From Arbacia lixula (taxonomy: Eukaryota > Echinodermata > Echinoidea > Arbacioida > Arbaciidae), in the NCBI GenBank assembly GCA_963669155.1, contig CAVLGW020000038.1, positions 21,124-85,123 on the forward strand: 64,000 bases of DNA, written 5' to 3'. Of this stretch, positions 2,690 to 58,417 are shown piece by piece. Position 1 is the first letter of the stretch. Every line of letters begins with the position of its first letter. The position numbers and the translations under genes are program-made. The notes beneath the pieces were generated by a model. The model was not told the origin of the DNA. It made no database searches and saw only the letters and a list, made by a program, of their open reading frames with translations.

Positions 2690-5600
2690 TTCCAAAACTC
2701 CATTATACGATCGAAGGAATGCACATATTTTGGGCGTTGTTTATATCCTCTTCATGACTTGGTATAACAACAATGTGACTTACAAACTTGTTTTCATGTT
2801 ATTGTTTGATAACATACATCAGTTGGTGTTATTCAAATGGATCCTTGCGAAGTCCTTGGATGGCAGCTCGTTTTTTTTTTTGACTTTTTACTTTCCTTTC
2901 CTTTCTTCAATTATCCGAAAGAATACAACCACATGGTGCTACCGAAAGTTTTACTATTTTCTAAATAGTATTTACTAGTAACAGTGTTATTGTTTGATAA
3001 CATACAGCAGTTGGTGTTATTCAAATGCTTTATCTATCTCCCTCTCTTCCTATCTGTATCATTCATTTATTGTCCTTCTCTCTCCAACTTTTTGCTATTA
3101 TAATGTAATTTCCATAAAGTTTTTTTTTTCATTTAATCAAGCTTCGTCTTATTTTGAAAAGCCTTCTCTTTATTTGTCTCTATTTTGAATGGTGTATAGT
3201 ATGATATCCTTAACCAAAATAAAGTTCAATTTCATCAAGCTTCGATGCGTTATGATAAGACTAGATTTAGTAATGTTTCATTAATGTTTATTCGTACTTT
3301 ATAATGATCGACATATGTATTCTCATTACATGTATTTGAAGTCAAGCATTTTGAAGTTAAATCACATCAATCGCGTCAGTGTCAAGTTGATACATTTCAC
3401 AGTTAAAAAATTGTTTCGCCTGCCCACAAAACCTTCTCATTATGCTAAACGCACTACAGCCCGCAACACTGTTCTTGGATGTCCTGCGTCAATCAATAAT
3501 CATACCAAACAAGGTGCAGTGAAATGTCAAACCGGTAAGTCATGCACTTTTTATCCTCCTTGAATCATGCACTTGGGTGGAATGAGAGGGTAGAAACAAG
3601 TGAAAATGGCAATGTTCTTTTTGAAGTGCGTAAATGATTACCATCTATTAAACAAATATTCTTTAATACCGTAATTACAATAGGATGGAACAGATTCCAC
3701 ACGTTACAGTCGGGTATGTCACAGTGCCGTGTGGTATCAGTTGTTTACAGGAGCAGGGATGAAATAAGAAACGAATTCGCATAAATTGTGCCCATATTAA
3801 AACATTGATATTGAAACAAGCTCCTGTTTAATGTTTTGGCTCGCATGAAATTTGTTACCCGCCTTTTCTAGATTTGTGTACATGCAAAAAACAATAATAG
3901 GAAGCTTCTATGGACAGAAAATCAAAGTCCTCTGAGTAGAACATCCCCTCCCAGCTACTTCTAAGGATTGTTAACGTAGAGGATTAATGATTATGCTGCT
4001 GGTTAAAGGGTTAGTAAATGAGAAAAATAAGTTCCCACTAATCTATGTAAATCTATCCACTTATAAAACGAATTTCACATTTGTTTGCCGCAATAAAGTC
4101 TCATTTTGATGAACATTTGAAAGAACGCACACCTCCAAGTGACGTTACAGGATTAAATGCCATAAAAGACTACGCTGTTAAACTTAGATTATATGGAAGT
4201 CAACAATAGACCATTTTCGTAATGTGTTCACAACTTTCCCCCAAACTGCGTAGTAACGCGTTATTGCATTCACCTGTATCTTGTCATTCAGATTCAATGG
4301 ATGGAATGCACTTAGAATCTATTAGTTGTTGCTACTTTGGGGCTTTGGGGTTCTCATTGGTAACGTATTGTTTGAACGGCGTGAATAAAATTTGAATACA
4401 TAACGAAAAAGGTCTATTAGAAAATATTGTTGACTTCCGTACAATCAAAGTTTAACAGTTTTTTATGGCATTTAACTCCTCTGACGTCGCTAGGAGGTGT
4501 GCGTTTTATCTCATTTTGACGAAAATATGATAAAACGCAAATTGAGACTTTTTTGCGGCAAACAAATGTGAAATTCGTTTTAAGTGGATAATTTTACATA
4601 AATTAGTGGGAACTTATTTTTATAATTTAGTAACCCTTTAAGTGGGATGAATTGTGCCCATTTGTATGAGTATATAGGATATCTTTGTTAGAATATATCT
4701 CAAATTCAGGACGATTTTGCAACTAATGTACGTGTATAAAAACGGGAATTGACCATAGTCATAAGGTATGACTTCATCAAGTATTAAACAGGATCAGCAA
4801 AATGTGGTATACAGACAATGATAACTCAACAACTTCCAGCTACAATCAGTGTGGTATTGCTAAGGAACCTTTTTAGGTCGTCTGTCGTACACCGACGGAT
4901 CACTTTCTAATTTCGTTAGAATTTTCTTTCTTTTTATTTAATGCCCCCACTTTTTTGTGTCATCTATATCTCAACAATGCATGTGTCATGTTTTATCAAA
5001 TGTTCACCCTGTAACCTGTTAATTCCTGGCTTTCAAGGATATTACATTATCGTGACGTCATGCACGAGCAATTTAATGAAAATCTATTACTTCATGTAGC
5101 TCTAAAACTGATCATATATATGTAATGAAAATTGACAGGCATAACATTAATAACATGGCAATTTATTTCAATGAATAAAAACGCGCGCGTACGCGTACGT
5201 TATTTCAATAACGCGCGCGCAAAAATTTTAAAATGCTCCAAATAAACTTAAAATTGTTTTGCATGTTTCAGGCAATTTCAGCATTTCAAAAATTTTCGCG
5301 CGTTTTTTCGTGCGTAACGCGAACAGAACGTCAAAATTCCGTTATTTTTCATGTTTCTGACACTACATACATTACATCCTGTAATTTTGAGCCATTTCCT
5401 TGCAATAACAAGGTCGTGCGGGTGCGTCAAAATTGAAAGTTTGCGCGTGCGTCAATAGGTTTTCGTGTGCAAATATTGCAAAAAACATCTCCAATCTGCC
5501 ATAGCTCTTCAGAATTGCTGGTGACCCCAAAATTTTTCTTTTAATATTCGGAAAGAATATGAGATGTAGATGTCATTTTATGTATCATTCCATTAAGTAC

Positions 5601-8600
5601 ATCGTGACGTTATTATATTGCCATATTAGAATAAAAAAATAATTTTCATTTATGACGTCATGAACTTGGTAATCCTTGATAATTTTTCTCCCAATTTTCA
5701 GTATGTGGTGTGTCTATGGTAAAACATGCCTTTATACACACTTTGATTCCGCCATTAGGGTATAAATTTTGATGAAAAGCATTATGTCAAATTTTCACCT
5801 ATTTACGTGTAATGTCAACAGGAGAGGCATTTATTTCAAATCATGAATTGACATGACGGTCGTTCAGCAGGTGTATCTCGCTTATGTTTGAATCTTTTAC
5901 TTTGAAATTTTAGTACATTGTACCCGAGTCTACAAGCTGTCGGAGACGTAGTCTCCATTTTCTAATCAGATGTCGGGATCTTGGCGAAATTTCAGCTTGA
6001 ACATTGATTTCTAAATCATATTAGCCTCTTTTTCTGCTTTACGTGTTAAGTGAATGGGTAGATTTGTGGCTTATCAATGGGCAAGGCGCTGTTTTAAGAA
6101 CGCGAGGCCCCCGGTTCGAATCCTGGTGTGGGTAGGGTCAGCTTTTCATTCCTCTTGCAATGTGATTTTTGCGACCTTCTTTTGTTCAATCCCTCACTTT
6201 GTCATTCTCTTTGAGATTTTCTTTCCAATTTTTTTTTTCTCCTCGCCGGCCCCTTTTCCTTAAATGACTATTAATTATATGTTGTTAGCACATACATGTC
6301 AGCATTTAGGCAAGTCTCTTTCGTGTGTGCTGCCTTTGATTGCTAATGAACAGATGATGTCACCACGTAAGGTCCATGGTGTCACCATGCATTTATCATC
6401 CAATGTGTGTGTAAAAATTTGTCATATAGACCACCTTATACTTGTCCACAGGTATGTCTCGTTGTACTTTTCTTTGTTCTTATTTTTTTTCTGTATTCTT
6501 CTCTAGTATTTGTTGTATCTTTTCAGAGGAGGAAGGGAAGGGGTTAGGCACATATTCTGTAGTTATCATTCACTTAGAGGCATTGCAGGATCATGGAAAT
6601 TGTGTTTTATGATATTACACACATCAAAGACAAGAAAAATATAAAGTAGAATTGAAAGAGTTATATCAACAACATTAATTGATGAAATAACGTTTTATTT
6701 CTTTGGCCTATAATTACACGTTTTCCAGATGGATACCTGGGGTGCTTCAGGGATTACCAGAACGCCCGCCCATTGGCTACTAGCCCGTGTCCTCCTGGCC
6801 CGAACTCTAATTATGCCTGCATAGATAGAGACAACATGACGACGGAGAGCTGCCTAGAGTACTGCAGGACGCTCAACGGACATGAGGTCACCTTTACGTT
6901 TGCCGGGGTCAGAGCGGGTAGCGAATGCACCTGTGGCGTTGACATAACAGAGCTGGGAGATTCACGCCATGCATACTGTGCATACTGGGGCAATTACTGT
7001 GACTCGCCTTGTAGTGGTGACCGAAATTACTCCAATTGTGGTAGTTCACAGTGTATAGCAGCATTCAATAGTAAGTGCTTTTCAGAATGTTGCTATACCT
7101 CCAGTATGTCACTGTAAAGGTAAACGGAAACCGTAAGAAATGTAGTGTTCTTCTGCCATAAAGATGGGTTCTGCTCTTGTTTGATTTTTGGATACCAGAA
7201 AGGAATCATCTCAAAATGTACAAGACTATTCAAATCAAACTGAACCCACGTTCGATGATAATGGGAGACTAGTTGCAATAATAACATGCCATTATAATTT
7301 TCAATACTTCCCCTTCAATACTTCCCTATGCTAGCTTAATTCAACTCCCATGACCATGATGGTTATGTTCTTTTGTATGGACGGTAAGCCTGTGTGATTG
7401 TGGATGTGACACTTCCACAATATGCAACTTGCAGAAAGATTTTCACACTGACAAGTACGATTTTTTGAAAAAAGGGGTTTTTTTTAGATCCAAAGAAAGA
7501 ATGATTCATTTGTTTGAATCTTAAAAGGTTCATCGTTATTAAACATCTCCTACCTTTTAACTTAAAGTCATTTCTTTCTTTTTTGTTGTTGATAAGGGAA
7601 GCCAAATTTAATTGGAAAACTGTTGGAGAAGCATTGTTTGATCGGGAGGTTAATTAAGTAATTAATTTCTTTATTTATTTTCCCCTGTTCGGATTAATGA
7701 CCCTGGTCAGCTAAAAGCTTTTTTTTTTACTCGGGCACAAATCATTAATAAAAAAAACATTCTCATATATTTATCAACATTCTTATGTTTGTCTTACAAT
7801 GATGAAGACTAAACAACATCACAGAACATAAACACTGAATATCGTAGTGTCCCCACATCTCCCATACGTCACCTTACAGGTAATGGGTCGTAATCATGTT
7901 GTCAAGACAACGGAACCCGTAAGAAATGTAGTGTTGTTCTGCCATAAACATAGGTTCTACTATTGTTTTTTTTTTTTTGGATACCAGGAAGGAGCCATCA
8001 CAAAATGTACAAGATTATTCAAATCAAACTGAACCCTGGTTCGAAAATAATGACAGACTAGTTGCAATAATAACATGCCATCGTAATTTCCCATACTTAC
8101 CCTTACCTGTAATATCTAAACTCAACTTCCATGATCATGATGATTACGTTTCTTTGTATAGACGAGAAGCCTGCGTGATTGTGTATCTCACATTTCCACA
8201 ATATGCAATTTGAAGAAAACTAAAAACTTGCACACTGTCTTACAGGTATCATTTTCAAAGCTAAATAAGAAGTTTAATAAACAATTTTTGAGAGCTAGGA
8301 GTGCTTTACTTTTTTGACTCTCAAAGGATTTATTTCTTTAACATGCTCTAGCTCGTAACATGAAGTCATTTCTTTTTTTGTTGGTAAGGGAAGCAAAATT
8401 GAATTGAAACGGTGTTGGAAAAGCGTAGTTTAATCGAAAGGTTAATTGAGTCATTTATCTATTCATTTATTCTCCCCTGTTGGGATAGATGACCGTGGTC
8501 AGCTAAAAGCTTTTCTTGACTCGGGTCTAAACCATTCATAGTGAAAACTTTGAGCCCGTTTTGGACAAAAGGTAAATACGCGCTCGCTGCCTGAGCGCGC

Positions 8601-11600
8601 ATCACCGGTCTCGGCTCCAATTGGGTAGGACTACTCCATTATGGCAAATAGGGGTGATTGCTTAATTTACGGATTATCCCTTCCACGGCTGCACAAGTAG
8701 GACACAGGTTCAAATGATTCCAAATGCAAACAGATAGTCGTTTCGCATGCATCCTCCACACGTTCTTCAGCTATTGACCGCAAGCACTTGTACGTGCTTC
8801 ATAACATAATTTTAGATATGGGGTTGGTTACAGGGGAAACGTAGCATTGCTCTAGAATCTTCCCTTCAACTGGCGGATCCAGCTAGAGCCTAGCCAGAGC
8901 TATCAAGCCCTCATTTCAAACTCAGAGTCAGACGAATGCAAATAAAGTCAAACCTTGTCAGTTTGAAACCATGAATTCCAACACAAGTAACAAGACTAGT
9001 AACAATTAAGGGGTCGACATGCTTTATTGAGTTACCATGTTTATTCCCACAAGTGTGTACGCTAGCTACCAAATTAATCATTTCGTAATAAAGCTGCTAC
9101 TAGTACTATAAAACCAACTTTTTTTTGCACGCGTGGGACCAAGTCTCAGTCACCGTTCACACAATATTCTTTCCGCTGCAGAGTGCAGACAACACCGAAA
9201 ATATGCGTTTATTTCATTATTTAGCGATGTGTATGGGAAATACGCTCCATACAGCATTAAACAATGGGTGAACTTTCAAATATCTCACCTGCATTGTTCT
9301 CAATATTCTGGACATTGTTAGAACTTCAAGTAAAGGAACACAAATGTCACAGGAATATGCAGTTCTCGTCGCTGAGTCGTGATCCGGCGCGTCTGCAGCG
9401 CGTACCTGTCGATTGCGCGCAACGCTCGCGACGCCCCCGCTCTATAATGGAATCGTCGCATTACGTCATTTGCCGCAGTTCTCGTTGCCTTCTTTTCTAT
9501 TATTGTCTCTCATTAGACAAAACTTTTTGGAACAAAAGTGCAACGAGATTTTACAGCCAATGAGAATAAGTCTTATATCAAGTTTTAGTGTGAAATCTCT
9601 TCTGTCAGAAACCGCTCGCCCCAGACTGACTGCTTGCTTCGTTTGTTTTCTGTAGGCCTACACGTGTGTGATGTACATGTTTGTTCGTCGAATTCGGAGG
9701 CATTTCCCATAGACTTTCACCTCAAAAGACGAATGCGTAACAGATTTCAAGCAAAAAGTGCAACGAGACCACTTGATATCCTCGAATTATTGTTAGTTAA
9801 TCATGTGTAGAAAAGTGTTGGCTTTCAGATGCTACTCGCCCCAAGCGAGGATATTTATGCTAACATGTAAAAAATTAGCGATTTATGACACAATGTCACG
9901 AAATCTAACATAAATTTACGTGTTATATCGACGCGCGGACATGCACACGCGCGCACGGTGAGTAAATGTCCACAATGTTTCACTATGATAAAAACAACAT
10001 TCTTATAGTTGATTTACAATAATGAAAACTTAACAACATGACTGAAAATTAACACTGATAGCAACAATTGAAAAGGGCAAGAACAAATATATAAAGCAGA
10101 AGATGCATAAATGAAAAAAAATCCAAAAGAAAAACATGTAAATGACCATCTCGCCACCACATTTTGTGTTCCCATGGTGACACCATCATTAGTTACCAGT
10201 GAGCCTGATGAGCATTGTGTACGCCCCTCTCCGGATCCAACGGACACCACCACTGAATCGTACACCACCATGACCACCAACCGAACCGACGTCGCCACTA
10301 AAGCGTACACCACCACCACGGCGGACGCCACCACCCGAACCGACGCCATTCCAGCGAAACCCGATGATGACTCGTGCTTCCGTAGATCTGACGGAAATGC
10401 TGGTTAGTATACGGGCTTGTGGGTGCTAGAAATACGTGTTATTTTTTGTACTTGAGTAATAGATATTCAGATTAGTATGCAGACTTGCAATGGGTGCTAG
10501 ATATGCAGATTAGTAAAGGGGGATTGGGTGTCAGATATGCGTGTTTGTATTGGGACTTGGGTGTCAGATATGCATGTTAGTATTGGGACTCGGGTGGTAG
10601 TTTTTCAGTCAGCTTAGGAACATTGATACATGTAGTAGGTATGTCCGTAGGTAGGGGGACTTGGGTTCGAGACATGCAGGTAAGTATATGCACTTTGGTG
10701 CTAGATATATACAGATTGGTGTAGGGGAAGTGGTTGTATATATCCAGAATAGTACAATATAGGGACAGGGATGATGCAGGGGAGTACAATAAAACTTCCC
10801 ATGAGGAATCTGTAACTACGAATTACCGTGCTGCTGAAGTTATATTTTCTCTCGGTAAACTTGGTTGATGCAATCGAACTGTTTGAAAAGTTTACTTTTA
10901 CTGATACCATTACGTAAGCAACATCATTAATAGAGCCAGTGACAGTGTGAACTGTCAAATCTGCGATGGTATCATCAATGTAGTTGAGAATGATTTGCCT
11001 GATTGACGAATTCCTGAATGATGTCGCCTCATTGTCCTACGTGTCAAATGAATGAACTCTCCATGTACATAACCTGGAACAGTTACGATTGATACATTAT
11101 AGCAACATGATTATGGCCAATATATTTGATAAAAGCTCATCATTTTCTTTAAGCCCACAACGCAGGAATAGGTGTCGGAGTCGGAGTCGGAGTAGTGTTA
11201 TTGGCAGTCCTAGCTATGGTCAACGTGTACGTCTGCGCACAGACACGCAAGTTAGTGTAAGCTGACATTGTGCGAAGTTTTACGCATAAGGGGCACCATG
11301 CAGATAGCACCAAAATAGTGTTAAGTCGGGACAGGGCTGTTTACTTTAAGGCTAGTTGTCTTGTTTACTCGCCAGGTGATGTTACACTGTGTATGAAACA
11401 ATCAGCCATAAATGATACGTAATTACAGACAGGGTAGCCCATTTGCAAAAGTTTTGAAACTCAGCTGGAATCAGCAGTCTACCCTAACGATAACTTGTAT
11501 GAAATCTCACAGTCATAGTTTATTGTATTCTTCTTTATGCGTCTTCTTCGACCTTTCTTTTGGCTTGTTCTTTGTTTTCCAATCTTCTTCTTTCCATTCT

Positions 11601-20258: not shown

Positions 20259-20460
20259 GTAAGTAGCAACAGATAAAATGGTATCGTGGTGCCACATCGA
20301 TGACGAGTGACGAAAACGATATCTATCCGGGCTGGACGCACTCCGGGGTCTCGCTGGTGGCAATGGAGATGGAGGCGGTATATGAAGAAGCGCGTCCGGG
20401 TAGTGAGGAGGTAATGACGAAGACCAATGATAGCCCGGACTCCTTCTTTTATTATGTCAA
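20259..20460 (+). pseudogene. solitary decayed copy of the receptor cytoplasmic-tail exon
   Basis: Acceptor CTTTACAG is kept, but the phase-2 frame meets TAA at once, and a 1-nt shift separates it from the conserved part. In the shifted frame it reads MTSDENDIYPGWTHSGVSLV followed by AMEMEAVYEEARP, the same block as in gene A and gene B. About 240 bp upstream also matches the gene A last intron (ATTCATCCGTTATTGTGTTG). No transmembrane, stalk or WSC exon lies nearby, so this is a relic of a mostly deleted gene copy. In the open frame it continues past the homology with FYYVNFDYYER, of unknown meaning. Confidence 0.65.
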
Positions 20461-23327: not shown

Positions 23328-23412
23328 ATGAAGGTATCTGTTGTGGAAACAATTTTAGTATATCTGATGCTGGTTCGTTTGGCATCACTTGCTGCAGAGA
23401 AAATTGTCGCAG
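23328..23412 (+). CDS. Gene B exon 1: signal peptide
   Basis: The exon reads MKVSVVETILVYLMLVRLAS followed by LAAEKIVA, a short basic start, a hydrophobic core and a small-residue cleavage region. It ends in phase 1 at donor GTTAGT. Gene C has the matching exon at 55936. Joining directly to the SRCR exon gives AEKIVA-GISLVGGSGP without disturbing the domain start. I chose the only ATG that gives a signal peptide. Confidence 0.7.
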
Positions 23413-39000: not shown

Positions 39001-42000
39001 AAAAAAAACCTGTTGATTTGTGTTTGCTGATACCTGTTATGCTCATGGAAGTACTAATGCCGTTAACAGAACGGGACAAGCGAAATGAGACTGGACATTT
39101 GTTTTGTTCTCTCTGCATGAAAAGCCGTTGCCACACAATCATTATCATAATTGTCCAAACACCTGTACAGCACCTGTTGAGAACACATAACTTTTCAGCG
39201 GCGTGACACATGGGTTCAAAGAAAGAAAGTTGCTTCATATCCTTCCATAACACATCCCTGGTATTGCACACATGAAAGACAAGACAATCTGAATAATAAT
39301 TGAAAGGGTTACAACAACATTCATTGATAAAATAACCTTTTATTCCTTTGGCCTATACTCACACGTTTTTCAGATGGATACCTGGGGTGCTTCATGGATG
39401 ACCGGGTTGCCCGCCCATTGGCTACTAGCCCGTGTCCTCCTGGCCCGAACTCTGATTATTCCTGCATAGATAGAGACAACATGACGACGGAGAGCTGCCT
39501 AGAGTACTGCAAGACGCTCAACGAGAGTGACGTCATCATTACGTACGCCGGGGTCAGAGCGGGTAGGGAATGCACCTGTGGCGTCAACACAACAAGCCTG
39601 GGACGTCGGTACGCTGATAATTACTGTAACTCGCCTTGCAGTGGTGATCACAATTACTCCAATTGTGGTGGTCCCAGCCGTATAGCAGTATTCAATAGTA
39701 AGTGCTTGCCAGAATGTTGCTATATCTCCAATATGTTACTTGAAAGGTCATGTTACATGAAAATGTATGTTGACTTTAATAATTTGATGCAGCTTAATAT
39801 TCATATAACCAAATCACTAACTGTTCTATGGAATTATATGTCTTATTTTCTAAAATATTTTTGTATGTTTTCTCAGCACTTATAAGCCCCCCCCCCCCCC
39901 CCCCTCCAGAATATCCTCGAACCATGTACTTATTATGGATGGACTGCGCTCGGATATACTTCCTTCGATCTTTGCTGACCGCCGCCTCATAAAAAAATTC
40001 AAGAATTCAGGTGTTTCAAACAATACGGTGTATTTCTAATTAAGCAGTGCCTTCCTCTGAATAACAAATGAAAACCTGGTTTGAGAAATACGTCAACCGT
40101 TCATAGCTGGGAGCTGGGAGTTCATTGCTGATCTTATTACAAACACTGGAATTATATTGGGGGTGAGCAAAGGGAAATGTTAATAATATTGCAGAAAGAA
40201 TTTGTTCCGTAACTTTTTTTCGGACGTCTCCGCACATGAAATCGAGGTTGTTTCCATGGAAGGTGAAACGATTTACAAGATATTTGAAAGGAAATATATT
40301 TGCCCAATGTGCGATATGGATGCATTTCTCTGACATGTTTTCGACAGTATTCTCGATTTATCGAAAAAACGAAGCAACAACATAATCTGAAATTCACAGA
40401 ATCGTATCAATATACGATGTTCTACTACTGCACATGCACTTCAGTACATGAAGTGGTTCTGAAATCTTCTGCGCATATACTGAATATACATTCTTCTAAA
40501 TGCATCCAAACTTTGTCTTGCGTATTTGCCGGCGGATCTCCCTCGATTAATGAGCTAAATAGTCCGGGAGCCCAGAAGATTTATTCATGTGAAAAGGGCC
40601 GGAACAACTGATCCCATAGGTCGAAAGGATATACCCTGGGCATCACAAAAATGTTTTGCTGGCAAGGTGTACCCGATGCTTTTCCCCCCAAATCACCATA
40701 AATGTGAGGTCACTACCGAAAAGCCTTTTTTTTTTCAAAAATGGTTGGAATATAATACATGGTACCATCATAACAAAGGTGTTCACACACATTTTTTTTA
40801 TGCACAATTATCAAAATTGATTGGTATAGTTTGGTTGCCTAGTAAATATGCAACATCATCATTGACTTGTTTTTGCAATGGCAGCTCTATGGGCGACGTC
40901 GATGACGACGATATGTCGCGACGACGACAGCAAAATGCAACACTTTTGTTCGTTTTTTGTGCTCTTTTTCGGTTAAAACTTTTTCAATTCTTGTTGTTCA
41001 CAAACCATTCCAAATATTTATTTCAAACTTAGTTTGCTGTGTTTGGCATTTCTCAAGCTTTTCAAAACATGTAAAAATGTGATATTTGGTCACGCTAATG
41101 GTCATCTCCTGACCAATAATAGAGCGTAACGTTTTGGTAGAATGCACGTAAAGTCGGACAAAATAATGCGTACGTCCTATATACGCGTATATTCTGGATA
41201 CGTGCTACTTTTTGGTTGAAACGTTTCAAATCTTTGTAATCCAAGAACCATACCCCACATTTCCTTTCAAGTTAGCCTGATGTTTTTGGCATTTCTTCCA
41301 CTTTTCAACACATATATGGATGTTACATATTGTCACACCTATGGTCATCTCTTGGCCAATAATATAACGGAGCATTTTGGAAGAATTGCGTGAAATCGGA
41401 CAAAATATTGCGTATTAACTGTTCATGTGTATATTCTGTAGGCGTGTTACTTATTGTTTGAAACTGTTTAGATCCTTGTACTTCAAGAACCATACAACAT
41501 ATTCATGATATTACTTTCCGACATGTTCTGGTGATTTTGGCATTCCTTCCACCTTTCAAAACATATAATGATGTCACATATTATCACGCTTATAGTCATC
41601 TACTGACCAATAGCATAATGTCACATTTTGGAAGAACGAACGTAAAATCCGACAAAATACTGCGTACGTTCCATAAACGCGTACAATTTTGGATAAGTAT
41701 TACTCTTCGGTTGAAACTTGTTAAAATCATTGTAATCCAAGAGCCGTACCATACATTTCCTTTCAATTTGCTCTGATGTTTTTGGCTTTTGTTCAGCTTT
41801 TCAAAACGTATATGGATCTTACACATTGTCACACCTATGGTCATTTCCTGACCAATATGTAACGGAGCGTTTTGGAAGAATTGAGTGAAATCGGACAAAA
41901 TATTGCGTATTAACTGCATACGTCTATATTCTGTATGCGTGTTACTTTTCAGTTGAAACTGTTTAGATTCTTGTACTTCAAGGACCATACAACATATTAC

Positions 42001-48000: not shown

Positions 48001-51000
48001 ACATGTGTTCTGCTCTTGTTTGTTTTTTTGGATACCAGGAAGGAACCACCTTAAAATGTACAAGATTATTCAAATCAAACTGAACCCACGTTTGATGATA
48101 ATGGCAGACTAGACTAGCAATAATAACATGCCATCATAATTTCCCATACTTCCCCTTACCTGTAATATCTAAACTTAACTCCCATGATCATGATAATTAG
48201 GTTTCTTTGTATAGACGAAAAGCCTGTGTGATTGTGCATATGACACTTCCACAATATGCAATTTGAAGAAAACTAAAAACTTGCACACTTACAGGTATGA
48301 TTTTTAAAGCTAATTAAGGTGTTTAATAAACAATTTTGAAGGCCAAGAGTGCTTTACTTTGTTGACTCCCAAAGGATTTATTTCTTTAAGATGTTCTACC
48401 TCGTAACATAAAGTCATTTCTTTTTTTTTTCTTTTTTTGTTGGTAAGGGAAGCAAAATTGAAGTGAAACGGTGTTGGAGAAACGTAGTTTAATCAAAAGG
48501 TTAATTAAGTCATTCATCTATTCATTTATTTTCCCCTGTTGGGATAGATGACCGTGGTCAGCTAAAAGCTTTTCTTGACTCGGGTCTAAACCATTGATAA
48601 AAACAACATTCTTATAGTTGATTTACAATAGTGAAAACTTAACAACATGACAGAAAATTAACACTGATAGCTACAATTCAAAAGGACAAGAACAAATGTA
48701 TAAAGCAGAAGATGCATAGATGAAAAAAAAATCCAAAAGAAAAACATGTAAATGACCATCTCGCCACCACATTTTGTGTTCCCATGGTGACACCATCATT
48801 AGTTACCATGGTTACCAGTGAGCCTGATGAGCCAGAAGCCCCCACGCATTGTGTACGCCCCTCTCCGGATCCAACGGACACCACCACTGAATCGTACACC
48901 ACCATGACCACCAAACGAACCGACGTCGCCACTAAAGCGTACACCACCACCCCGGCGGACGCCACCACCCGAACCGACGCCATTCCAGCGAAAACCGATC
49001 GTGACTGGTGCCTCCGTAGATCTGACGGAAATGCTGGTTAGTATATTGGCATGGGTGCTAGATATACGTGTTAGATTTTGTACTTGAGTACTAGATATTC
49101 AGATTAGGATGAAGACTTGCAATGGGTGCTGATATGCAGGTTATTATGGGGGCTTTGTTGTCAGCTGTGCCAAATATATTCATTTAGTACAGTGGCATAC
49201 ATTCATGCTACAATTATGCCTGTTATCATAGGGATTGGGGTGCTAAGTATTAGCACGTAGTATAAAGACCGGGTTAGTACTTGGGTGCTAGATATACATA
49301 TTAGTGTCCGGATTTGCGTGCTATGCAGGCTAGTATAATACTTATTTATTTCCAAGACTTAAAACAGGGTGGTCCATTAACATAAGTGGTCTTCCATGAG
49401 GTCATATATCTGTATATAGGGGCATGGGTACTAAATATGCAGTCTAGTTTCGGGGCAGGGGTGATTGATATGCAGGTTAGTACTATTATAGAGGCAGTGA
49501 TAATAAGTGTACGTTATATTAAGCTACGACTATCATGCGGCTGATGTTATAGTTTGTCTCCGTTGACCCCTATTCTGACTCGGAATTCGAAATTCACTCC
49601 TGACGCGCAACCGCTAAATATCGCGACATGCCTTATCATGACTTGTTCTTTTAAAGTGTCTTGCAACTTTTGACACCACATGTAAAAAAATCGGCCAAAC
49701 TGTTCAGAGCTTATGCAAAATTATGTAATCGCATTATGTAATCGCCTAAAAATCTGACAAAATATTAGATTTTGCATAAGTTCGTGTACAAAATACTGTT
49801 ATTCCTAAACTGTTCTTCATTACCGTCAATTGTGCCTTCTAGGCATTTTGCTTGATCACATAAGTCTTGAAATGTATCAAAATGAATAATTATCTGAAGC
49901 AAAAGAAAAATGATTTAAATGAAGAAAAACAGTAGAATACATACGAAATTTAATTTTAATTTCAAAGTATTTTGATATGGAGTTGTCGATTATGCTACTC
50001 GGCATATGAAGAGAAAGTTTGACTTTCATATCATCTTTTTTTCGATGAAATATACAGAGATTTGTCAAATATGCATCTAATTTTCATAAATCACAATTTA
50101 GCAAAACAATTTTTTTTTCCTAGAACGAGTCAAAACCTGCCCTCAAAAAGCCCGGTCAGAATAGGATTAACTTGGTTGTTGCAACCGAACTGTTTGAAAA
50201 GATTACTTTAACTGATACCATTATGTAAGTAACATCATTAATGGACCCACTGAAATTGTGACCTGTCAAATTTGCGGTGGTAGTTTCAATGTAGTTGATG
50301 ATTAATTGCCATCGACGGATACCGAAATAACGTCGCCTGCTTGTTGAAGTGCCAAGTGGATGAAACATTGCAGGTACATAACCTGAAACAAAGAACAATT
50401 AATACATTGTAGATATGTTTAGGTTTTATGCTCAATAAAGGTCCATTTTCTTATTTTCTTTTTTTTTTGGAAGCCCGCAACGCAGGAATAGGTGTCGGAG
50501 TCGGAATAGTGTTGTTAGCAGTCATGACTGTGGTCAACGTGTACGTCTATGCACAGACACGCAAGTAAGAATTGTTAGCTGATCTCGTGTTAAGTTTTAC
50601 GTAAAGGCTATCTGGTGTATAAAGCACCTGAATGGTGTTAGATCGGGACAGTATTGTTCACTGTCGAGCTAGTTGTCTTATGTGCTCTCTCATGTGACGT
50701 CACATTGTGTACGTTGCAATCAGCCATACTAACCTCACGATAATTTGTATGAAATCTTACAGTCATAGCTTCACCCACTTTTTAGGAAAAGTGATTAACT
50801 ATCTTTGTTTGTTTACACGGAACGAATGGCACCATTGTCTATATTTATAATCGCATTGCCTCTGTCAGTGTGCAATGTGTTGGTCCATGGGCATTGCTCG
50901 CATTGATCGTATGCACCATTGCGCAAACCTGAGCGGACAACGGTCTCCGGTCTCTAGGCTGTAAGAATCGTAATGTTAATGGCGACCCTTTCAAAACCTC

Positions 51001-52007
51001 CGCGAAATCTAGCGATCGCTATAATTTCGCTTGAAATCAGCGTCTAGTTTCATTATTGGGATAGAAGTTCTTATCAGTAGTAGTTTCTTCCTTTTCCCGT
51101 GTTTGTAACATTTTATTTGGTTGACATGCGTGCAAAAAGCCTACCCTGTCTTTAAACGAATGTGCCGCTGTGTAGTATAATGAAGAATTACTGCATTATT
51201 CGACATACATGTGGAATGTAAGACTTTAGAGATATGAACATCCAGTTTGTGAAAATAATTCAAATTTTAACTGGCCGTTTTCCCCGCATTTTTATTCTCC
51301 GTGAGCTTCTTCTTTTTGCGTTTTTTTTCACCTTTTATTTTTCCCTTTTCTTCTCTTTTCCTATCTTCTTCTTTCTATTTCTTCTCTTTGCTGTTTAATT
51401 CATCCGTTATTGTGTTGAATAAATGCCTCTGACGTGCTCCAATGTAGTCCACACCGAATGCGCATGCGCCAAGTCAATGAGTTAACCTATCAATCTCTTT
51501 AGAAATAAGTGTAACCTGACGCATAAAGCCTGCAGTATCCGTACCGCATATAACATAAAGTGACGCATTCATCTTAATTCAAATCGATGCATTGACTCAT
51601 TAATTATTTAACGTGACGCATGCGCAACCAGTGTTTCACGCCCTTAACCATAGGAACGTAGAAGGCCTACTGTAATGTGTAATTACTTGATATAAAAGTC
51701 ATTGACGGCATGAGCATCACTTCTATTACTACACAGGCAAGTAGCGAAGAATGAAATGGTACCGATGGCGAAGCTGACGACGAAGGCGACGGCTGACACA
51801 TCGACGCTGAGTGACAAACACGATGTCTGCCAGCCCATGCCGACCCCGCCGACCAGCGACTACTACACTGGGCAGGACGTCCCAGCGCAAGATCAGGACA
51901 TAAGCTACGAAAACTCGATTGCACCTGGCGGGGCGCACTCCGGGGTCTCGGTGATGGCTATGGAGATAGAGCCGGTATATGAAGAAGCGCGTCCGGAAGA
52001 CAGCTAA
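23328..52007 (+). CDS. Gene B: complete SRCR-WSC type I transmembrane receptor
   Basis: Model: join 23328-23412, 29250-29483, 36140-36241, 39374-39697, 48803-49036, 50486-50564, 51737-52007. The lengths 85+234+102+324+234+79+271 total 1329 nt, 442 residues plus stop, with no internal stop. Domains in order: signal peptide (about 1-22), SRCR (about 29-140), WSC (about 141-248), Thr-rich stalk (about 249-326), transmembrane helix (about 327-349), cytoplasmic tail (about 353-442). Ectodomain exons are all symmetric phase 1-1, the usual layout for shuffled extracellular modules. Introns are large because of inserted elements. A surface recognition receptor of the SRCR superfamily is inferred; the ligand is unknown. 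No transcript evidence is available, so the joins rest on splice signals, phase and conservation with genes A and C. Confidence 0.75.
23440..23720 (+). repeat. (TAG)n trinucleotide microsatellite in intron 1
   Basis: About 280 bp of imperfect AGT/TAG repeats start about 30 bp inside the first intron of gene B. It is open in several frames (Ser, Val, Leu or Tyr runs), but these are artefacts of the repeat. Confidence 0.9.
24185..25028 (+). mobile_element. non-LTR retrotransposon RT fragment (Rex/L2-like)
   Basis: The + strand reads GAPQGCVLKPVLFSMYAS (about 24238), then IIKYADDTVITGYISDSVDS (about 24309) with the catalytic YADD, NVTKTKELIIEFRR, VNEYKYLGTSISNSLKWS, and after a stop CYLANATKADLKRLEQPRK. 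It closes with a (TAA)n-type tail at 25007-25028. Frameshifts and stops make it inactive. Confidence 0.75.
25030..25430 (-). mobile_element. LINE C-terminal fragment
   Basis: The minus strand reads HWLPMRQRIAFKVLLIVYKT, then LLGQAPGYITELLG and NDQAFACVAPSSG, the common C-terminal segment of CR1/L2-type ORF2. Its 3' side has the GCGCAGTACAATAT-like motif and TTA repeats seen at LINE tails. About 85 codons remain. Confidence 0.65.
25700..26160 (-). mobile_element. second LINE C-terminal fragment with TNN-repeat tail
   Basis: The minus strand reads KQRITFKLLLFVYKILNEQA, PEYLTNCL, then LRLTYPKTRTLAGDRTFTVS and ALKHWNDLP. It continues into AAGCGCTTTGGGCC and ends in ATT/ACT trinucleotides at 25700-25756. 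It is a distinct copy from the one at 25030-25430. Confidence 0.7.
26283..26491. mobile_element. 209-bp MITE, PIF/Harbinger-like
   Basis: The ends are GGCACCACGAAAAAAATT and the inverse AATTTCTCCGTGGTGCC, flanked by TTA on both sides (26280-26282 and 26492-26494). A 3-bp TWA target duplication is typical of PIF/Harbinger. No coding content. Confidence 0.7.
26895..27311 (-). CDS. LINE ORF2 C-terminal Cys-rich domain
   Basis: The frame reads LNKQLYKMKIVSDEYCSFCK, then VEDIVHFFYDCEISKFIW, the zinc-knuckle-like C-terminus found in L1/Tx1-group ORF2 (CxxC...HxxxxC). It is separated from the RT frame by one frameshift near 27340. Confidence 0.75.
   Translation of the reverse strand: MFLNKQLYKMKIVSDEYCSFCKKEVEDIVHFFYDCEISKFIWKETEKWINRGSLVQIKFNLRNVIFGFEEKRNDALNCIVILIKQQLFVQKLNNKMPIFNTIKKKVIQYYEDEKYINYITGTHSKFVVKWQSLRSLFV
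27366..28634 (-). CDS. LINE ORF2 RT fragment
   Basis: The 422-codon frame starts inside the RT domain. The catalytic box is QYADDTVLFLDG at about residues 29-40, followed by LKMNMQKTNAIWIG, the thumb DYFRYLGTDF, and WIKRDITVLGRVTVAKSLLL. Upstream RT motifs lie in a different frame, so a frameshift falls near 28585. The frame ends at 27366, and the ORF resumes in another frame as DIALRYFQYKIVNRILFLNK. Confidence 0.78.
   Translation of the reverse strand: MRGNSWGVNSKFTIGKRNFYQSKEFKVLQYADDTVLFLDGTAASFRNVLHILDSFGNCSGLKMNMQKTNAIWIGALKGSEDIRLDGRQVNFVHNDYFRYLGTDFHVDIDKMPDYNYDRIFDKVKRQMISWIKRDITVLGRVTVAKSLLLPQFNHLFMSIPAPSIKLMKAIKVKFFNFIWKNKPDKISRKQVVGTYEEGGLKMPDVEFFSMSLKLTWIRRFVLGTCNDVFHLMQSFLTKPFVVGFGDEYFSTLSHELANPFWKDVFYALSLLCQVEVDDWLTYPLWRNSSIQIGKKSVFFKSWYEKGIRCINDLIDSKGTLLTHDECEQKFCLKLNYLSYYSITQAIKCRYRIYIGKCEKSLEGPLMPSHIKTLVCDSQGCRYIYKTLFGKTNCIPSICSKWERHLDYNPVTSFMQKCHIIIF
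28775..28950 (+). pseudogene. relic of an extra exon-like block (cf. 57650-57840)
   Basis: This block aligns with 57650-57840 in gene C: GATTAGAGACCAAATAATTG, AACCGCCAC and GTGTGCAGATTTATTTGAC. The last part stays open (DQIIGNRHINFREIVIFDVL, RVCRFI, stop), but upstream stops and frameshifts break it. It is not needed in the gene B model. Confidence 0.4.
29250..29483 (+). CDS. Gene B exon 2: N-terminal two-thirds of SRCR domain
   Basis: The exon is 234 nt (78 codons), phase 1-1, with acceptor TTTATAG and donor GTAAGA. It reads GISLVGGSGPHEGTVQV, then AEAIAICRTLGYPGMNRV and EWLRFEVRCP. LVGGSGPHEG opens most SRCR domains, and CRTLGYPG and the WL..VRC segment are the central conserved positions. 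The usual WGTVCDDGWD segment is replaced by a cysteine-free stretch (SNDGSQLSLVTMPMF), so the first SRCR disulfide partner is missing. The domain ends in the next exon. Confidence 0.8.
29913..30268. mobile_element. 356-bp near-perfect palindrome (foldback MITE)
   Basis: The left half, from ATATACTGTACTGGGAAGGC to AATCCTCAAAATGTTC, is mirrored by the right half from GAACATTTTGAGGATT to GCCTTCCCAGTACAGTATAT, centred near 30088-30092. Few mismatches separate the arms over about 170 bp. It has no ORF and would form a long hairpin if transcribed within the gene B pre-mRNA. Confidence 0.85.
30835..32030 (+). mobile_element. LINE RT relic, split by a DNA transposon
   Basis: Left part: LSLYADDTAIFWKDKEYS (about 30896) and, after a frameshift, FKLQSQFGTTTKWLQCN. 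Right part: EHVNELR, stop, LGVVLGGSLNLTSHVENVVK, RCHKQLAA, then IRRVKCYLTKEIMITLVYSL. Removing the insert at 31104-31800 plus one CTTGAA gives an unbroken YKNDILEHVNELR. Confidence 0.75.
31104..31800. mobile_element. 697-bp TIR element (CCAGGGATGTG family), copy 1
   Basis: The ends are CCAGGGATGTGCTAGGAAGG and the inverse of CCTTCCATAACATATCCCTG. CTTGAA is duplicated at 31098-31103 and 31801-31806. It shares its body with the 2.3-kb element at 36942-39261 (for example CAAGCGAAATRAGACTNNACATTT and GTTCAAAGAAAGAA-type blocks). Confidence 0.8.
32127..32679. mobile_element. inverted-repeat MITE family M, copy 1
   Basis: Left GTATATTACAAAATTACTTA, TGTGCAATGAAAATATATG and CTCAAGATTCCCATCGTGAC are mirrored on the right by GTCACGATGGGAATCTTGAG and CATTGCACAGTAAGTTATTT. 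The arms are about 170 bp around a unique centre. A second copy lies at 47433-47885. Confidence 0.78.
32920..33140 (+). repeat. poly-C tracts within a twofold tandem repeat
   Basis: Two C-runs (about 25 and 19 nt) sit beside two copies of AAGAGCACTNTCAGAGACTG about 140 bp apart, with (CA)n between. It is G-quadruplex-prone on the minus strand. No gene. Confidence 0.7.
33385..34270 (+). repeat. dispersed repeat E, copy 2
   Basis: This is the second copy of the element at 4990-6460, including the ACGCGCGCGTACGCGTACG core at 33524-33542 and the GACGTCAT boxes. It lacks the tRNA-like segment. It occupies a different position relative to the receptor exons, so it moved independently. Confidence 0.6.
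34270..34454 (-). mobile_element. LINE RT fragment
   Basis: The minus strand reads HDVLLSKLDLYGIRVYQLMQ, then WLKCYFYNRKQYNIFKGF, the finger/palm segment between RT motifs of CR1/Jockey-type LINEs. Only about 60 codons are present. Confidence 0.7.
35135..35985. mobile_element. 851-bp hAT-like non-autonomous element with 8-bp target duplication
   Basis: ATTTGAAG flanks both ends (35127-35134 and 35986-35993). The empty site in gene A, GTATTTGAAGTCAAGC at about 3336-3351, has it once. The ends are inverted around TTTGCAAAAGGGTTAGATCC and GGATCTCACCCCTCTTGCAA. The interior is itself a doubled unit: the end-like CCCCTCTTGCAAACAAA recurs at about 35540 and GTTCATTTGCAAAATGAG at about 35584. Confidence 0.82.
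36140..36241 (+). CDS. Gene B exon 3: C-terminal end of SRCR domain
   Basis: The exon is 102 nt (34 codons), phase 1-1, with acceptor CGTTTTACAG and donor GTAAGT. Joined to exon 2 it gives EVRCPDHSNSTVIGCPGHIH, PVHDIHALPARRGAVKC. This fits the SRCR end (VxCxG.E..LLDCP....H.C.H..DAGVxC) except that the cysteine in the HxC segment is absent. NST is a potential glycosylation site. Confidence 0.68.
36942..39261. mobile_element. 2.3-kb TIR element (CCAGGGATGTG family), copy 2
   Basis: The ends are CCAGGGAGGTGTTAAGAAGG and the inverse of CCTTCCATAACACATCCCTGG. TATTA/TATTG flanks it. Gene A has the empty site GATATTACACACATC at about 6611-6625. The element ends only 112 bp before the WSC exon. The part from about 37310 to 38980 is absent from copy 1 and may be the fuller element or a nested insert. 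No transposase ORF is recognised. Confidence 0.75.
39374..39697 (+). CDS. Gene B exon 4: WSC domain
   Basis: The exon is 324 nt (108 codons), phase 1-1, with acceptor GTTTTTCAG and donor GTAAGT. It reads (D)GYLGCFMDDRVARPLATS, then MTTESCLEYCKTL, YAGVRAGRECTCG and CNSPCSGDHNYSNCGG. All hallmark WSC cysteines are kept. The first 12 residues and the segment after TLNE/TLNG differ most from gene A, and six codons are missing between LG and DNYC/GNYC. The open frame beyond the donor is intronic read-through. Confidence 0.82.
39880..39905 (+). repeat. poly-C run
   Basis: About 20 consecutive C residues in the intron after the WSC exon, followed by the start of dispersed repeat D. Confidence 0.85.
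39930..40559 (-). repeat. dispersed repeat D, left part (interrupted)
   Basis: The reverse complement matches 61485-62065. The remaining part of the repeat continues at 47345-47430, beyond the foldback element. The minus strand is partly open (CNKISNELPAPSYERLTYFS), matching CNKISYELPAKAERLTYFSK in the other copy, but each frame is broken by indels. Possibly a retrocopy or the body of an unrecognised element. Confidence 0.65.
40560..47344. mobile_element. 6.8-kb giant foldback element with repeat-built arms
   Basis: The ends are perfect inverted copies, TAGTCCGGGAGCCCAGAAGA on the left and its inverse on the right. The arms, about 40560-43000 and 45550-47344, stay complementary through outer unique parts (GGCCGGAACAACTGA, TGGTTGGAATATA, TGCAATGGCAGCTCT). 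Inside these, about 245-bp units containing GGTCATCTCCTGACCAATAA and CGGAGCATTTTGGAAGAATT recur about eight times on the left and about six on the right, alternating between two types. The centre (about 43000-45500) is unique and non-coding, with scattered GACGTCGCGAC-like boxes. AAA flanks both sides, and the uninterrupted copy of repeat D at 61375-62065 shows the empty site. No transposase. Foldback elements with long repeat-built arms are known from sea urchins (TU type) and flies (FB type). Confidence 0.85.
47345..47430 (-). repeat. dispersed repeat D, right part
   Basis: AAACGCGTAAAATATTTTAT and GCACGCGACTGCTGTAGGAA match the reverse complement of 61375-61470. This completes the repeat that was split by the foldback element. 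Confidence 0.65.
47433..47885. mobile_element. inverted-repeat MITE family M, copy 2
   Basis: CCAACTCAAGATTACCCTTG, GTGACATCATCAAAGGTAGA and the inverse pair TCTACCTTTGATGATGTCCC, GGAGGCGGGGCTTATCAGTG match copy 1 at 32127-32679 on both arms. The arms are shorter and more diverged. Confidence 0.7.
47934..48592 (+). repeat. gene B single copy of the intronic segment duplicated in gene A
   Basis: Matches 7121-7745 and 7868-8536. It ends at GGGTCTAAACCATT and runs directly into GATAAAAACAACATTC, the uninterrupted arrangement. Confidence 0.72.
48803..49036 (+). CDS. Gene B exon 5: Thr-rich extracellular stalk
   Basis: The exon is 234 nt (78 codons), phase 1-1, with the same acceptor CATCATTAG as gene A and donor GTTAGT. 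It reads (I)TMVTSEPDEPEAPTHCVR, PSPDPTDTTTESYTTMTT, then AYTTTPADATTR and WCLRRSDGNAG. Eight codons longer than gene A near the start (EPEAPT insertion). Two cysteines flank the Thr-rich part in both copies and could pair with each other or cross-link receptors. Confidence 0.7.
49037..49510 (+). repeat. degenerate minisatellite, gene B copy
   Basis: Imperfect GGGTGCTAGATATNCAGGTT units, longer than the matching array in gene A (10403-10760). Confidence 0.55.
49569..50165. mobile_element. 597-bp TIR insertion in gene B intron
   Basis: The ends are CCTATTCTGACTCGG and the inverse of CCGGTCAGAATAGG. The aligned gene A intron (TTATATTTTCTCTCGGTAAACTTGG, about 10842-10866) has no insert. Non-coding; target duplication unclear. 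Confidence 0.62.
50486..50564 (+). CDS. Gene B exon 6: transmembrane helix
   Basis: The exon is 79 nt, phase 1 to phase 2, with acceptor CAACGCAG and donor GTAAGA. It reads GIGVGVGIVLLAVMTVVNVY, VYAQTRK. It lacks one GV pair compared with gene A, consistent with slippage in the GTCGGA repeat that encodes it. Asn and the TRK stop-transfer are kept. Confidence 0.75.
51737..52007 (+). CDS. Gene B exon 7: cytoplasmic tail, ITAM lost
   Basis: Acceptor ACTACACAG; the first base completes Lys. About 89 residues: DVCQPMPTPPTSDYYTGQ replaces the ITAM of gene A, with Tyr to Cys and both Leu positions changed (M and Q). SYENS and PVYEEARP are retained, within the conserved block HSGVSVMAMEIEPVYEEARP. 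TAA at 52005-52007 lies where gene A has TCG, so the tail is 24 codons shorter and lacks the YEPV motif. The homology continues into the non-coding sequence after the stop. Confidence 0.74.
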
Positions 52008-55935: not shown

Positions 55936-56023
55936 ATGGATGCATCCGTGGGGGAAAAGGTTGTGGTATTTCTGATGATGCTTCGTTTGGCGTCTCCAAC
56001 TCTAATGTTCGGGAATGTCACAG
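55936..56023 (+). CDS. Gene C exon 1: signal peptide
   Basis: The exon is 88 nt ending in phase 1 at donor GTAGAG. It reads MDASVGEKVVVFLMMLRLAS, PTLMFGNVT. It shares the LVLRLAS-type core with gene B exon 1 (LMLVRLAS) and joins in phase to the SRCR exon as NVTGVSLVGG. Confidence 0.62.
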
Positions 56024-56544: not shown

Positions 56545-56549
56545 CCCCA

Positions 56550-56616
<67 letters not shown>

Positions 56617-57084: not shown

Positions 57085-57115
<31 letters not shown>
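56545..57115 (+). repeat. interrupted (TC)n tracts in gene C intron 1
   Basis: Four separate CT-rich blocks (56545-56640, 56700-56765, 56908-56930, 57086-57117). The AT-rich spacers have no gene. Confidence 0.8.
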
Positions 57116-57119
<4 letters not shown>

Positions 57120-57321
57120 ATTTTTTTCTCTTAGTTTTCGACTGTCTCCTTTTACATCAATAACACAACACTCTTTGAATGTAAAGAAAGAAAATATTTC
57201 ACCGATTTATGTTCATTATACCTATTTTGTGTTTACTCCTCTTTATCTGTTTATAATAGTAGTAGTAGTAGTGGCAGCATCTTCTTGGAATACCACAATC
57301 AACCACGTGGCATGGTCATCT

Positions 57322-57460
57322 GGGGGGCATTTCATCAAAGGAATTGTCGGATATTTTATCCGACAAGTTTGCTCTCGGCCAATAAGATGAAAGTATTTCA
57401 GTAGCTTATAACAGTTTGTCGGATAAAACGTCCGACAAGTCCTTTGATGAAATGCCCCCC
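57322..57460. mobile_element. 139-bp foldback MITE
   Basis: Left GGGGGGCATTTCATCAAAGG and the inverse of CCTTTGATGAAATGCCCCCC are perfect. Each arm also contains its own inner hairpin (TTGTCGGATA...TATCCGACAA). Flanks are CATCT and TGGTG; no clear target duplication. Confidence 0.85.
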
Positions 57461-57649
57461 TGGTGATCGGGTCATCATAAAGGCAGCTAGGACATTACAG
57501 AACTGATTCAAGTGAACGAAACCTGAGTGATCCATTTTCAGCAAACATTTTATACATACTGTACGACTGACTTAAAATACAGAAAATCTATTTCCAAAAT
57601 GCGATAAATCCACATCTATAGTCATTAACTTTATTCAACTTTTTCGCAG

Positions 57650-57840
57650 CGTTCGGGAGGCAAGGGTTGTGTTATGACATGCAGTTTGACAGTCCTACGT
57701 TACGAACAGCTGGCATAATGACAGGGATATATGAGATTAGGCACATAATGATTACAGACCAAATAATTGATGACCGCCACCCAGACTTACTCGAAATGGT
57801 TGAATATGAAGTTGCGCGTGTTTGCAGATTTCATTGACTG
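57650..57840 (+). other. candidate extra exon between signal peptide and SRCR in gene C
   Basis: Acceptor TTTTTCGCAG. In phase 1 it stays open for 61 codons: FGRQGLCYDMQFDSPTLRTA, GIMTGIYEIRHIMITDQIID, then EVARVCRFH and a stop just before a GTTAGT. Gene B has a decayed match at 28775-28950. The stop argues against splicing at GTTAGT. A weaker donor GTGTTT at 57816 would keep phase 1. It could be a short alternative terminal exon (truncated secreted form) or a relic. Not recognised as any domain. Confidence 0.35.
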
Positions 57841-58185
57841 GTTAGTCTCCTACGTGTGTATGTCGGCTCACATATATCTATATATATATATTTTTTTTTT
57901 AGAAAAGTACAAGGATTAACGCCTGATTTCGTAATTTGGTTAAAGTATGAATGAACCAATGAATAAATGAATGAATGAATGAATGAATGAATGAATGAAT
58001 GAATGAACCGCACGAATAGATGAACGAAATGAAGAAGAAAAAACAATCGCATTAATTATTAAAAGTATTCACAAGTAAAAAGAATATAGAGGATTTCGTT
58101 AAAATGGGTTACTTAGTAATGCATTACTTTAGAATAAGAATATTTAGAAGCTGAGTTCAATCAATTATCACTCTTTAAAACACAG

Positions 58186-58417
58186 GTGTGTCTCTTGTTG
58201 GCGGATCTGGACCACATGAGGGCACTATTCAGGTTGTTGTATGATGATGGCACTCAATTTTCACCGGGCACAGGGCATATGGCTCACTTCAGTAGCTACT
58301 ATGTGTTCAGAGCTATTTGCAGGACTCTTGGATACTTCGGAGTAAACCGATATTTCCACCACTCTCCATATCCGGCAGATGTTATCGAGGAGCCTTACTT
58401 TTTCATCATATGTCCCG
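58186..58417 (+). CDS. Gene C exon: N-terminal SRCR part, frame broken
   Basis: Acceptor AACACAG and donor GTAAAG match gene B. It begins GVSLVGGSGPHEGTIQV, then a shift leads to LYDDGTQFSPGTGHMAHFSS, FRAICRTLGYFGVNRYFHHS and FIICP. The 5-nt gap after CAGGTTG, together with compensating differences, leaves the exon 2 nt short of a multiple of three. Confidence 0.62.

What the first reader, a model, noticed from the sequence alone, without database searches (positions are those of the whole stretch)
2690..58417. Tandem cluster of SRCR-WSC transmembrane receptors
At least four copies of one receptor gene lie head to tail: A (3' part), a tail relic, B (complete) and C (5' part). The domain order signal peptide, SRCR, WSC, Thr stalk, TM, tyrosine-rich tail is a combination I do not know as a described family. 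The gene B exons sum to exactly 1329 nt with consistent phases. Seen: exon matches, splice sites, phases. Known: SRCR genes are greatly expanded in echinoderms and amphioxus. Inferred: an immune-type receptor cluster.
Basis: partly seen in the sequence, partly recalled or inferred. Interest (0 to 1): 0.9.

Follow-up and report, generated by a model that had tools for sequence, protein, structure and literature searches.

The report
Array of variable half-SRCR–WSC receptors
The window holds one complete receptor gene and parts of others from a very large animal gene array whose outside domains differ strongly from copy to copy, as one would expect of a family that recognises microbes or non-self, although its function has not been tested.

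Summary
The receptor cluster is real. Gene B is complete: six exons, 1239 nt (not 1329), 412 aa: signal peptide, N-terminal half of an SRCR domain, WSC domain, Thr-rich stalk, TM, tyrosine tail. Gene A is complete too; its first two exons lie upstream of the window on the same scaffold. C has an open exon 1 and a frameshifted SRCR exon; the scaffold ends there. The "tail relic" matches the last exon of a recurrent tail-less subtype (9 such exons found genome-wide).

The window's subfamily has 25 near-full half-SRCR exons, 21 of them on C11. A sister subfamily lies on C11 too: 69 of 78 half-SRCR exons have a WSC exon within 6 kb downstream. Ninety-nine WSC exons that I listed lie in the last 3.7 Mb of C11.

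The window-type half-SRCR shows excess amino-acid change (dN/dS 1.34; closest pairs 1.52, p=6e-4), greatest where SRCR domains normally have WGTVCDD. The WSC framework is conserved, with one loop variable in length. The sister half-SRCR is conserved (0.61).

An immune-type recognition role is inferred. SRCR with WSC is already counted in sea urchin; I found no account of the half-SRCR, the supercluster or tail-less members.

The parts
6729..7070 (+). Gene A, WSC exon (phase 1-1)
   Evidence: Pfam WSC E 7.1e-10; 70% identical to B's; splice sites
10193..10402 (+). Gene A, Thr-rich stalk exon
   Evidence: 83% identical to B's stalk; open in the joined model of A
11154..11250 (+). Gene A, TM exon
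   Evidence: 76% identical to B's; hydropathy peak 2.57 over 19 residues
12480..12831 (+). Gene A, cytoplasmic tail exon with three tyrosine motifs and stop
20259..20420 (+). Isolated short-type tail exon; begins GTAAG, so a stop follows the junction codon; the 'tail relic'
   Evidence: One of 9 such exons in the genome; no TM exon found in 13.0-20.3 kb
23328..23412 (+). Gene B, exon 1: start codon and signal peptide (MKVSVVETILVYLMLVRLASLAAEKIVA)
   Evidence: Aligned with exon 1 of A and K; 13 such exons genome-wide
29250..29483 (+). Gene B, half-SRCR exon (phase 1-1)
   Evidence: Pfam SRCR E 0.034, below cut-off; MSR1 E 2.1e-6; 25 near-full copies genome-wide
39374..39697 (+). Gene B, WSC exon (phase 1-1)
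   Evidence: Pfam WSC E 4.1e-12 for the exon
48803..49036 (+). Gene B, Thr-rich stalk exon
50474..50564 (+). Gene B, TM exon
   Evidence: hydropathy peak 2.31 at residues 297-315
51737..52007 (+). Gene B, cytoplasmic tail exon and stop; shorter than A's tail
55936..56023 (+). Gene C, exon 1 with start and signal peptide, open
58186..58417 (+). Gene C, half-SRCR exon, frameshifted against B, A and K

Best explanation
Each intact gene encodes a single-pass type I receptor: signal peptide, half-SRCR, WSC domain, Thr-rich stalk, TM helix, tyrosine tail. The half-SRCR segment that stands where WGTVCDD is in SRCR domains, and the variable WSC loop, form a contact surface for microbial or self/non-self ligands, held by a conserved framework. 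Binding leads to phosphorylation of tail tyrosines and recruitment of SH2 proteins. Tail-less paralogues with the same kind of outside part dampen or sharpen the response. The array makes diversity by tandem duplication plus selection for amino-acid change. Shown: gene models, family size, splice and frame conservation, where variation sits, two tail classes. Inferred: immune role, ligands, phosphorylation, role of tail-less members.
For: Complete stop-free models of B and A. Coding-frame control. Family of 25 near-full half-SRCR exons beside a sister family in which 69 of 78 half-SRCR exons have a WSC exon 3' within 6 kb, against 2 of 78 on the 5' side. Excess amino-acid change in the window-type half-SRCR (dN/dS 1.34, bootstrap 1.01-1.75; 12 disjoint closest pairs 1.52, p=6e-4), while the WSC framework (0.49) and the sister half-SRCR (0.61) are conserved. 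Variable-length WSC loop. Tyrosine motifs in most of 25 long tails. Nine tail exons with the same early stop.
Against: No transcript, cell type, ligand or structure was examined. The variable segment alone (1.54, 0.96-2.35) and the WSC loop alone (1.63, 0.60-4.06) do not exceed 1 significantly. Gene conversion was not modelled and sites were treated as independent. Half-SRCR exons of the window type do not reach the Pfam cut-off in any of 4 scanned (B, K, L056 at E 0.025-0.094; L050 no match). Only 3 of 25 tails have an ITAM-like pair. Half of the six WSC exons grouped with the tail-less class carry a stop.
Confidence: 0.6

Rival explanations
1. The family serves gamete recognition or allorecognition rather than defence: rapid change reflects sexual conflict or self-labelling, with the same receptor anatomy.
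For: WSC occurs in sea urchin sperm-receptor relatives SpREJ6, 7 and 10 (PMC1934368, passages); reproductive proteins also show excess amino-acid change (general knowledge).
Against: SpREJ proteins are large PKD1-type proteins without this layout. A tyrosine tail plus a hundred-copy array fits sensing of many ligands better (inference). No expression data either way.
Confidence: 0.15
2. The genes are ordinary SRCR-WSC receptors whose second SRCR exon was missed, so there is no half-SRCR.
For: SRCR type A domains are encoded by several exons (PMC4491621, passages); the B intron is 9.9 kb long; my search used one typed consensus.
Against: No second half found in the B intron, in the 1.2 kb intron of gene K or in the 1.0 kb intron of sister gene U. 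The half-SRCR exon ends at the same place and phase in both subfamilies.
Confidence: 0.08
3. A chemosensory, adhesion or glycan-scavenging receptor family with no defence role.
For: WSC is called a putative carbohydrate-binding domain (PMC8211107, passage); large tandem arrays are also typical of chemoreceptors (general knowledge).
Against: Single TM helix and tyrosine tail rather than a multi-pass receptor; excess change in the outer half-SRCR only.
Confidence: 0.12
4. The window's copies are mainly decaying relics.
For: C's half-SRCR exon is frameshifted, the tail exon at 20259 is isolated, and B spans 28.7 kb with reverse-transcriptase debris between its exons.
Against: A and B are open throughout with canonical splice sites and matching phases; WSC is under purifying selection across the family.
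Confidence: 0.05

Closest known systems
Sea urchin SRCR genes that also carry WSC domains (PMC10855680; section 6 and passages seen)
   Same: SRCR and WSC in one gene product; massive tandem expansion in an echinoderm.
   Different: Whole SRCR domains are counted there; order, stalk, tail, half-SRCR and tail-less forms are not described in what I saw; its supplements could not be read.
Class A scavenger receptors MSR1/SR-A, MARCO, SCARA5 (PMC4491621, passages; PDB match)
   Same: Closest solved relative of the half-SRCR; positive selection reported beside WGTVCDD in MARCO.
   Different: They carry a whole six-cysteine SRCR and no WSC; their collagen-like stalk and type II topology are recalled.
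Kremen (kringle-WSC-CUB type I membrane protein; PMC3927609, passages)
   Same: Signal peptide, WSC and one TM segment.
   Different: Kringle and CUB instead of half-SRCR; no kringle or CUB match in A or B.
Amphioxus BbLcLRR, an LRR receptor with a WSC domain and tyrosine-dependent inhibitory signalling (PMC8211107, abstract start and passages)
   Same: WSC in a single-pass receptor whose signalling depends on tail tyrosine phosphorylation.
   Different: LRR outside part; not reported there as an array in what I saw.
Sp185/333 and He185/333 (PMC4204807, search listing only)
   Same: Highly variable echinoderm immune gene family.
   Different: Different proteins with no SRCR, WSC or tyrosine tail (recalled).

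Membership tests
SRCR superfamily | Domain of 90-110 residues with 6-8 cysteines (PMC4491621) | tested here: not met
   B's exon encodes 78 residues with two cysteines and matches profile 1-53 of 100; the sister exon has three cysteines in 16 of 17 copies and matches 1-55
SRCR superfamily | Profile or sequence match | tested here: inconclusive
   Window type below cut-off in 4 of 4 scanned; sister type passes (E 1.8e-6); MSR1 E 2.1e-6
WSC domain proteins | Pfam WSC match over the whole profile | tested here: met
   B 6.6e-11 over 1-82 of 82, A 2.1e-8 over 1-81
Type I single-pass receptor | N-terminal signal peptide and one TM helix | tested here: met
   Hydropathy only: stretches above 1.6 at residues 1-28 and 292-321; no dedicated predictor was run
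Class A scavenger receptors | Whole C-terminal SRCR domain | tested here: not met
   Half-SRCR is N-terminal and WSC follows
Kremen | Kringle, WSC and CUB | tested here: not met
   Only WSC passes a cut-off in A and B
ITAM receptors | YxxL/I-x(6-12)-YxxL/I in the tail (recalled) | tested here: not met
   YTRL-x10-YETL in 3 of 25 tails (L085, L086, L088), not in A or B
Diversified immune receptor family | Many tandem copies with excess amino-acid change in the outside part | tested here: met
   contrast with the sister half-SRCR
Diversified immune receptor family | Expression in immune cells or response to challenge | not testable with these tools
   No transcript data held

The most novel reading that the evidence does not exclude
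One animal chromosome end carries about a hundred half-SRCR–WSC receptors, part of which form a paired system: tyrosine-tailed signalling members and tail-less members share a variable outside part. The half-SRCR would be a new minimal recognition module, most variable where SRCR domains normally carry the WGTVCDD segment.
Probability: 0.3. Interest if true: 0.85.

Novelty: new variant of a known kind. Interest (0 to 1): 0.62.

Why it matters
Animals without antibodies need another source of receptor diversity. This array offers about a hundred co-linear receptors with a clear framework, variable segments, a signalling tail and a tail-less counterpart. Whether half an SRCR domain can be a binding unit, and whether paired signalling and tail-less receptors arose outside vertebrates, become directly testable with named exons.

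Tried and rejected
Block 28783-28953 / 57674-57842 as an extra SRCR exon: rejected. It is similar in A, B, C and K but carries stops or frame shifts in A, B and K, and C's open version has no Pfam match. A second SRCR half-exon between half-SRCR and WSC: not found. Scaffold C60 as the other haplotype of a C11 stretch: not supported, since in the listed matches no other copy is closer to B than 79% (WSC), 80% (tail) or 71% (half-SRCR) in amino acids; very divergent haplotypes are not excluded. Intron divergence beside the half-SRCR exon as a neutral yardstick: alignments too poor (mean p-distance 0.48-0.49). Structure prediction: unavailable. NCBIfam scan of B gave one meaningless weak match. 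A weak SIT-adaptor match of gene A (E 0.2) was not used.
Full report
What is there. On the plus strand it carries head-to-tail copies of one receptor gene. Gene B is complete: exon 1 23328-23412, half-SRCR 29250-29483, WSC 39374-39697, stalk 48803-49036, TM 50474-50564, tail 51737-52007. Together they make 1239 nt and 412 aa, read without a stop. The five introns have phases 1, 1, 1, 1 and 2 and AG/GT borders.

Genes A and C. A's WSC, stalk, TM and tail exons are in the window at 6729-7070, 10193-10402, 11154-11250 and 12480-12831. Its exon 1 (C60:4656-4752) and half-SRCR exon (C60:5735-5968) lie 15 to 16.5 kb before the window. The joined model is 443 aa, stop-free. C has an open exon 1 (55936-56023) but a half-SRCR exon with a frame shift against B, A and K. 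The rest of C would lie beyond the scaffold end.

Not chance. A search with B's half-SRCR gives 34 matches. Of these, 25 cover at least 75 of 79 residues: two on C60, 21 on C11, one each on C159 and C8. The other nine rows are three frame-broken exons (five rows, C among them), one partial exon and three weak matches on C8. In the 25 near-full exons the coding frame is stop-free in 25, against 1 and 0 in the other two forward frames. In 27 WSC exons read (from loci L009-L038) it is stop-free in 24, against 0 and 0. All 27 keep a GTAAGT donor in the same phase. A query with A's exon 1 finds 13 places. Comparing coordinates, each lies 5' of a near-full half-SRCR exon on the same strand, 1 to about 8 kb away.

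What the domains are. WSC is sure: B 6.6e-11 over profile 1-82 of 82, A 2.1e-8 over 1-81. The SRCR is not whole. B's exon scores 14.9 bits against a cut-off of 26.1 and covers profile 1-53 of 100. No SRCR is listed for whole A or B at E up to 1. Of three further window-type exons scanned, two give E 0.025 and 0.094 and one gives nothing. It is nevertheless related to SRCR: phmmer finds MSR1 at 2.1e-6. The equivalent exon of a sister gene (U, C11:22469501-22479300), with the same phases and the same place before WSC, passes the cut-off at E 1.8e-6 and again covers only profile 1-55 of 100. The second half was sought with one typed consensus in the B intron, in the 1.2 kb intron of compact gene K and in the 1.0 kb intron of U; nothing convincing was found. 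Both subfamilies therefore appear to use an N-terminal half-SRCR. Type A SRCR domains are encoded by several exons (PMC4491621, passages), so loss of a second exon is a simple origin (inference).

Size. B's joined exons 2-6 give 110 matches genome-wide, most on C11 between 20.2 and 22.3 Mb, others on C60, C159, C142, C8 and C2. The sister half-SRCR gives 78 exons on C11 that I copied from a capped list (150 scored of 572 candidates; E down to about 5e-15). Of the 78, 69 have a WSC exon on the 3' side, same strand, within 6 kb (median 1304 bp between starts); the 5'-side control gives 2. For the window type on C11, 19 of 21 half-SRCR exons have a WSC exon within 15 kb downstream. Ninety-nine WSC exons copied lie between 20.1 Mb and the end of C11 at 23.79 Mb. 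Among the 150 best classical SRCR exons listed, of 924 candidates, none is on C11.

Where it varies. Pooled Nei-Gojobori dN/dS for 25 window-type half-SRCR exons is 1.34 (codon bootstrap 1.01-1.75). Twelve disjoint closest pairs show 320 changes in 2112 non-synonymous and 69 in 690 synonymous sites, ratio 1.52, Fisher p 6e-4. The most variable stretch (alignment columns 33-50) lies just before AICRTLGY, where SRCR domains have WGTVCDD; its own interval includes 1 (0.96-2.35). For 27 WSC exons the ratio is 0.61 and the framework 0.49 (0.35-0.68). A loop between TELG and C-x-SPCSGD varies in length and sequence (1.63, 0.60-4.06, not significant alone). The sister half-SRCR gives 0.61 (0.39-0.97) from 17 copies; four of the 21 in hand were dropped because my donor pattern missed them. 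Excess change is thus a property of the window's subfamily. Sites were treated as independent and gene conversion was not modelled.

Tails. Twenty-five long tails were read (22 fetched plus A, B, K). L095 is frame-shifted and L090 holds two tail units in one frame. By pattern, 22 of 25 have YT[GRL][LM], 19 Y[ED][NT][SP], 21 [VL]YE[ENV] and 14 all three; B itself has YTGQ and so misses the first. Three (L085, L086, L088) show YTRL-x10-YETL, close to an ITAM. A second class has nine tail exons, the one at window 20259 among them. In all nine the exon begins GTAAG, so a stop follows the junction codon. In four genes of that class a TM exon was found: in three it ends in TAA just after the membrane segment, in the fourth it is open up to the stop in the tail exon. 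In two further fetched stretches (L124, L126) no TM exon was found. Of 26 window-type WSC exons on C11, 15 have a long tail and 5 a short tail within 8 kb. Six WSC exons were grouped as tail-less; five by a short tail nearby and L015 by sequence. Three of these six carry a stop (L010, L015, L020), and they do not form one clade on the WSC tree. Their half-SRCR exons (five) still show more amino-acid than silent change (pN 0.076, pS 0.029), but the numbers are small. In the window no TM exon was found between 13.0 and 20.3 kb, so the exon at 20259 is either a remnant or an alternative last exon of gene A.

How it probably works. A surface receptor whose half-SRCR and WSC loop contact varied ligands and whose tail tyrosines recruit SH2 proteins, with tail-less relatives as modulators. 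Anatomy and selection pattern are shown here; ligand, cell type and signalling are inferred. WSC is called a putative carbohydrate-binding domain in PMC8211107 (passage). Positive selection beside WGTVCDD is reported for MARCO in PMC4491621 (passages).

Known or new. SRCR plus WSC is not a new combination: PMC10855680 (section 6 read) lists 36 WSC domains in sea urchin SRCR genes. I saw no account of a half-SRCR exon, of this supercluster or of tail-less members in my searches. Those cover open-licence PMC papers only, and supplements could not be read. I file it as a new variant of the expanded SRCR receptor families. Confidence in the immune reading is 0.6; in the gene structure itself it is well above 0.9.

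Noticed in passing
29250-29295 and the same place in the other 24 near-full half-SRCR exons: The first 15 codons hardly vary even at synonymous sites (pS about 0.05 against 0.2-0.4 further on); the sister exons also dip there. Unexplained: gene conversion or a DNA/RNA-level constraint.
   Followed up: partly
20327-20399: About 70 nt of the short-type tail exon stay about 90% identical to coding long tails although they lie behind a stop. Unexplained.
   Followed up: no
40560-42161 and 45754-47344: 1.6 kb inverted repeat, 90.8% identical, holding about 243-bp tandem units, inside B's intron between the WSC and stalk exons.
   Followed up: no
26898-28661 (-) and 24290-24640 (+): Fragments of non-LTR-type reverse transcriptase: zf-RVT over cut-off, RVT_1 below cut-off.
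   Followed up: partly
L090 (C11:367950-368700): Two family tails in one open frame of 272 codons, 20 Mb from the main array.
   Followed up: no
L031 and L037: A second, partial WSC exon (C-terminal part only) just downstream of the full one.
   Followed up: no
L102, reverse complement, about 1057-1356: Tail-like open frame of a neighbouring sister gene with YTDLDI, PLYQDLLP, GCYVN and DYEDFV-stop; a different tyrosine set from the window's family.
   Followed up: no
G000 C22:6624826 and C22:6626080: A sister-type half-SRCR exon with a WSC exon 1.3 kb downstream, outside C11.
   Followed up: no
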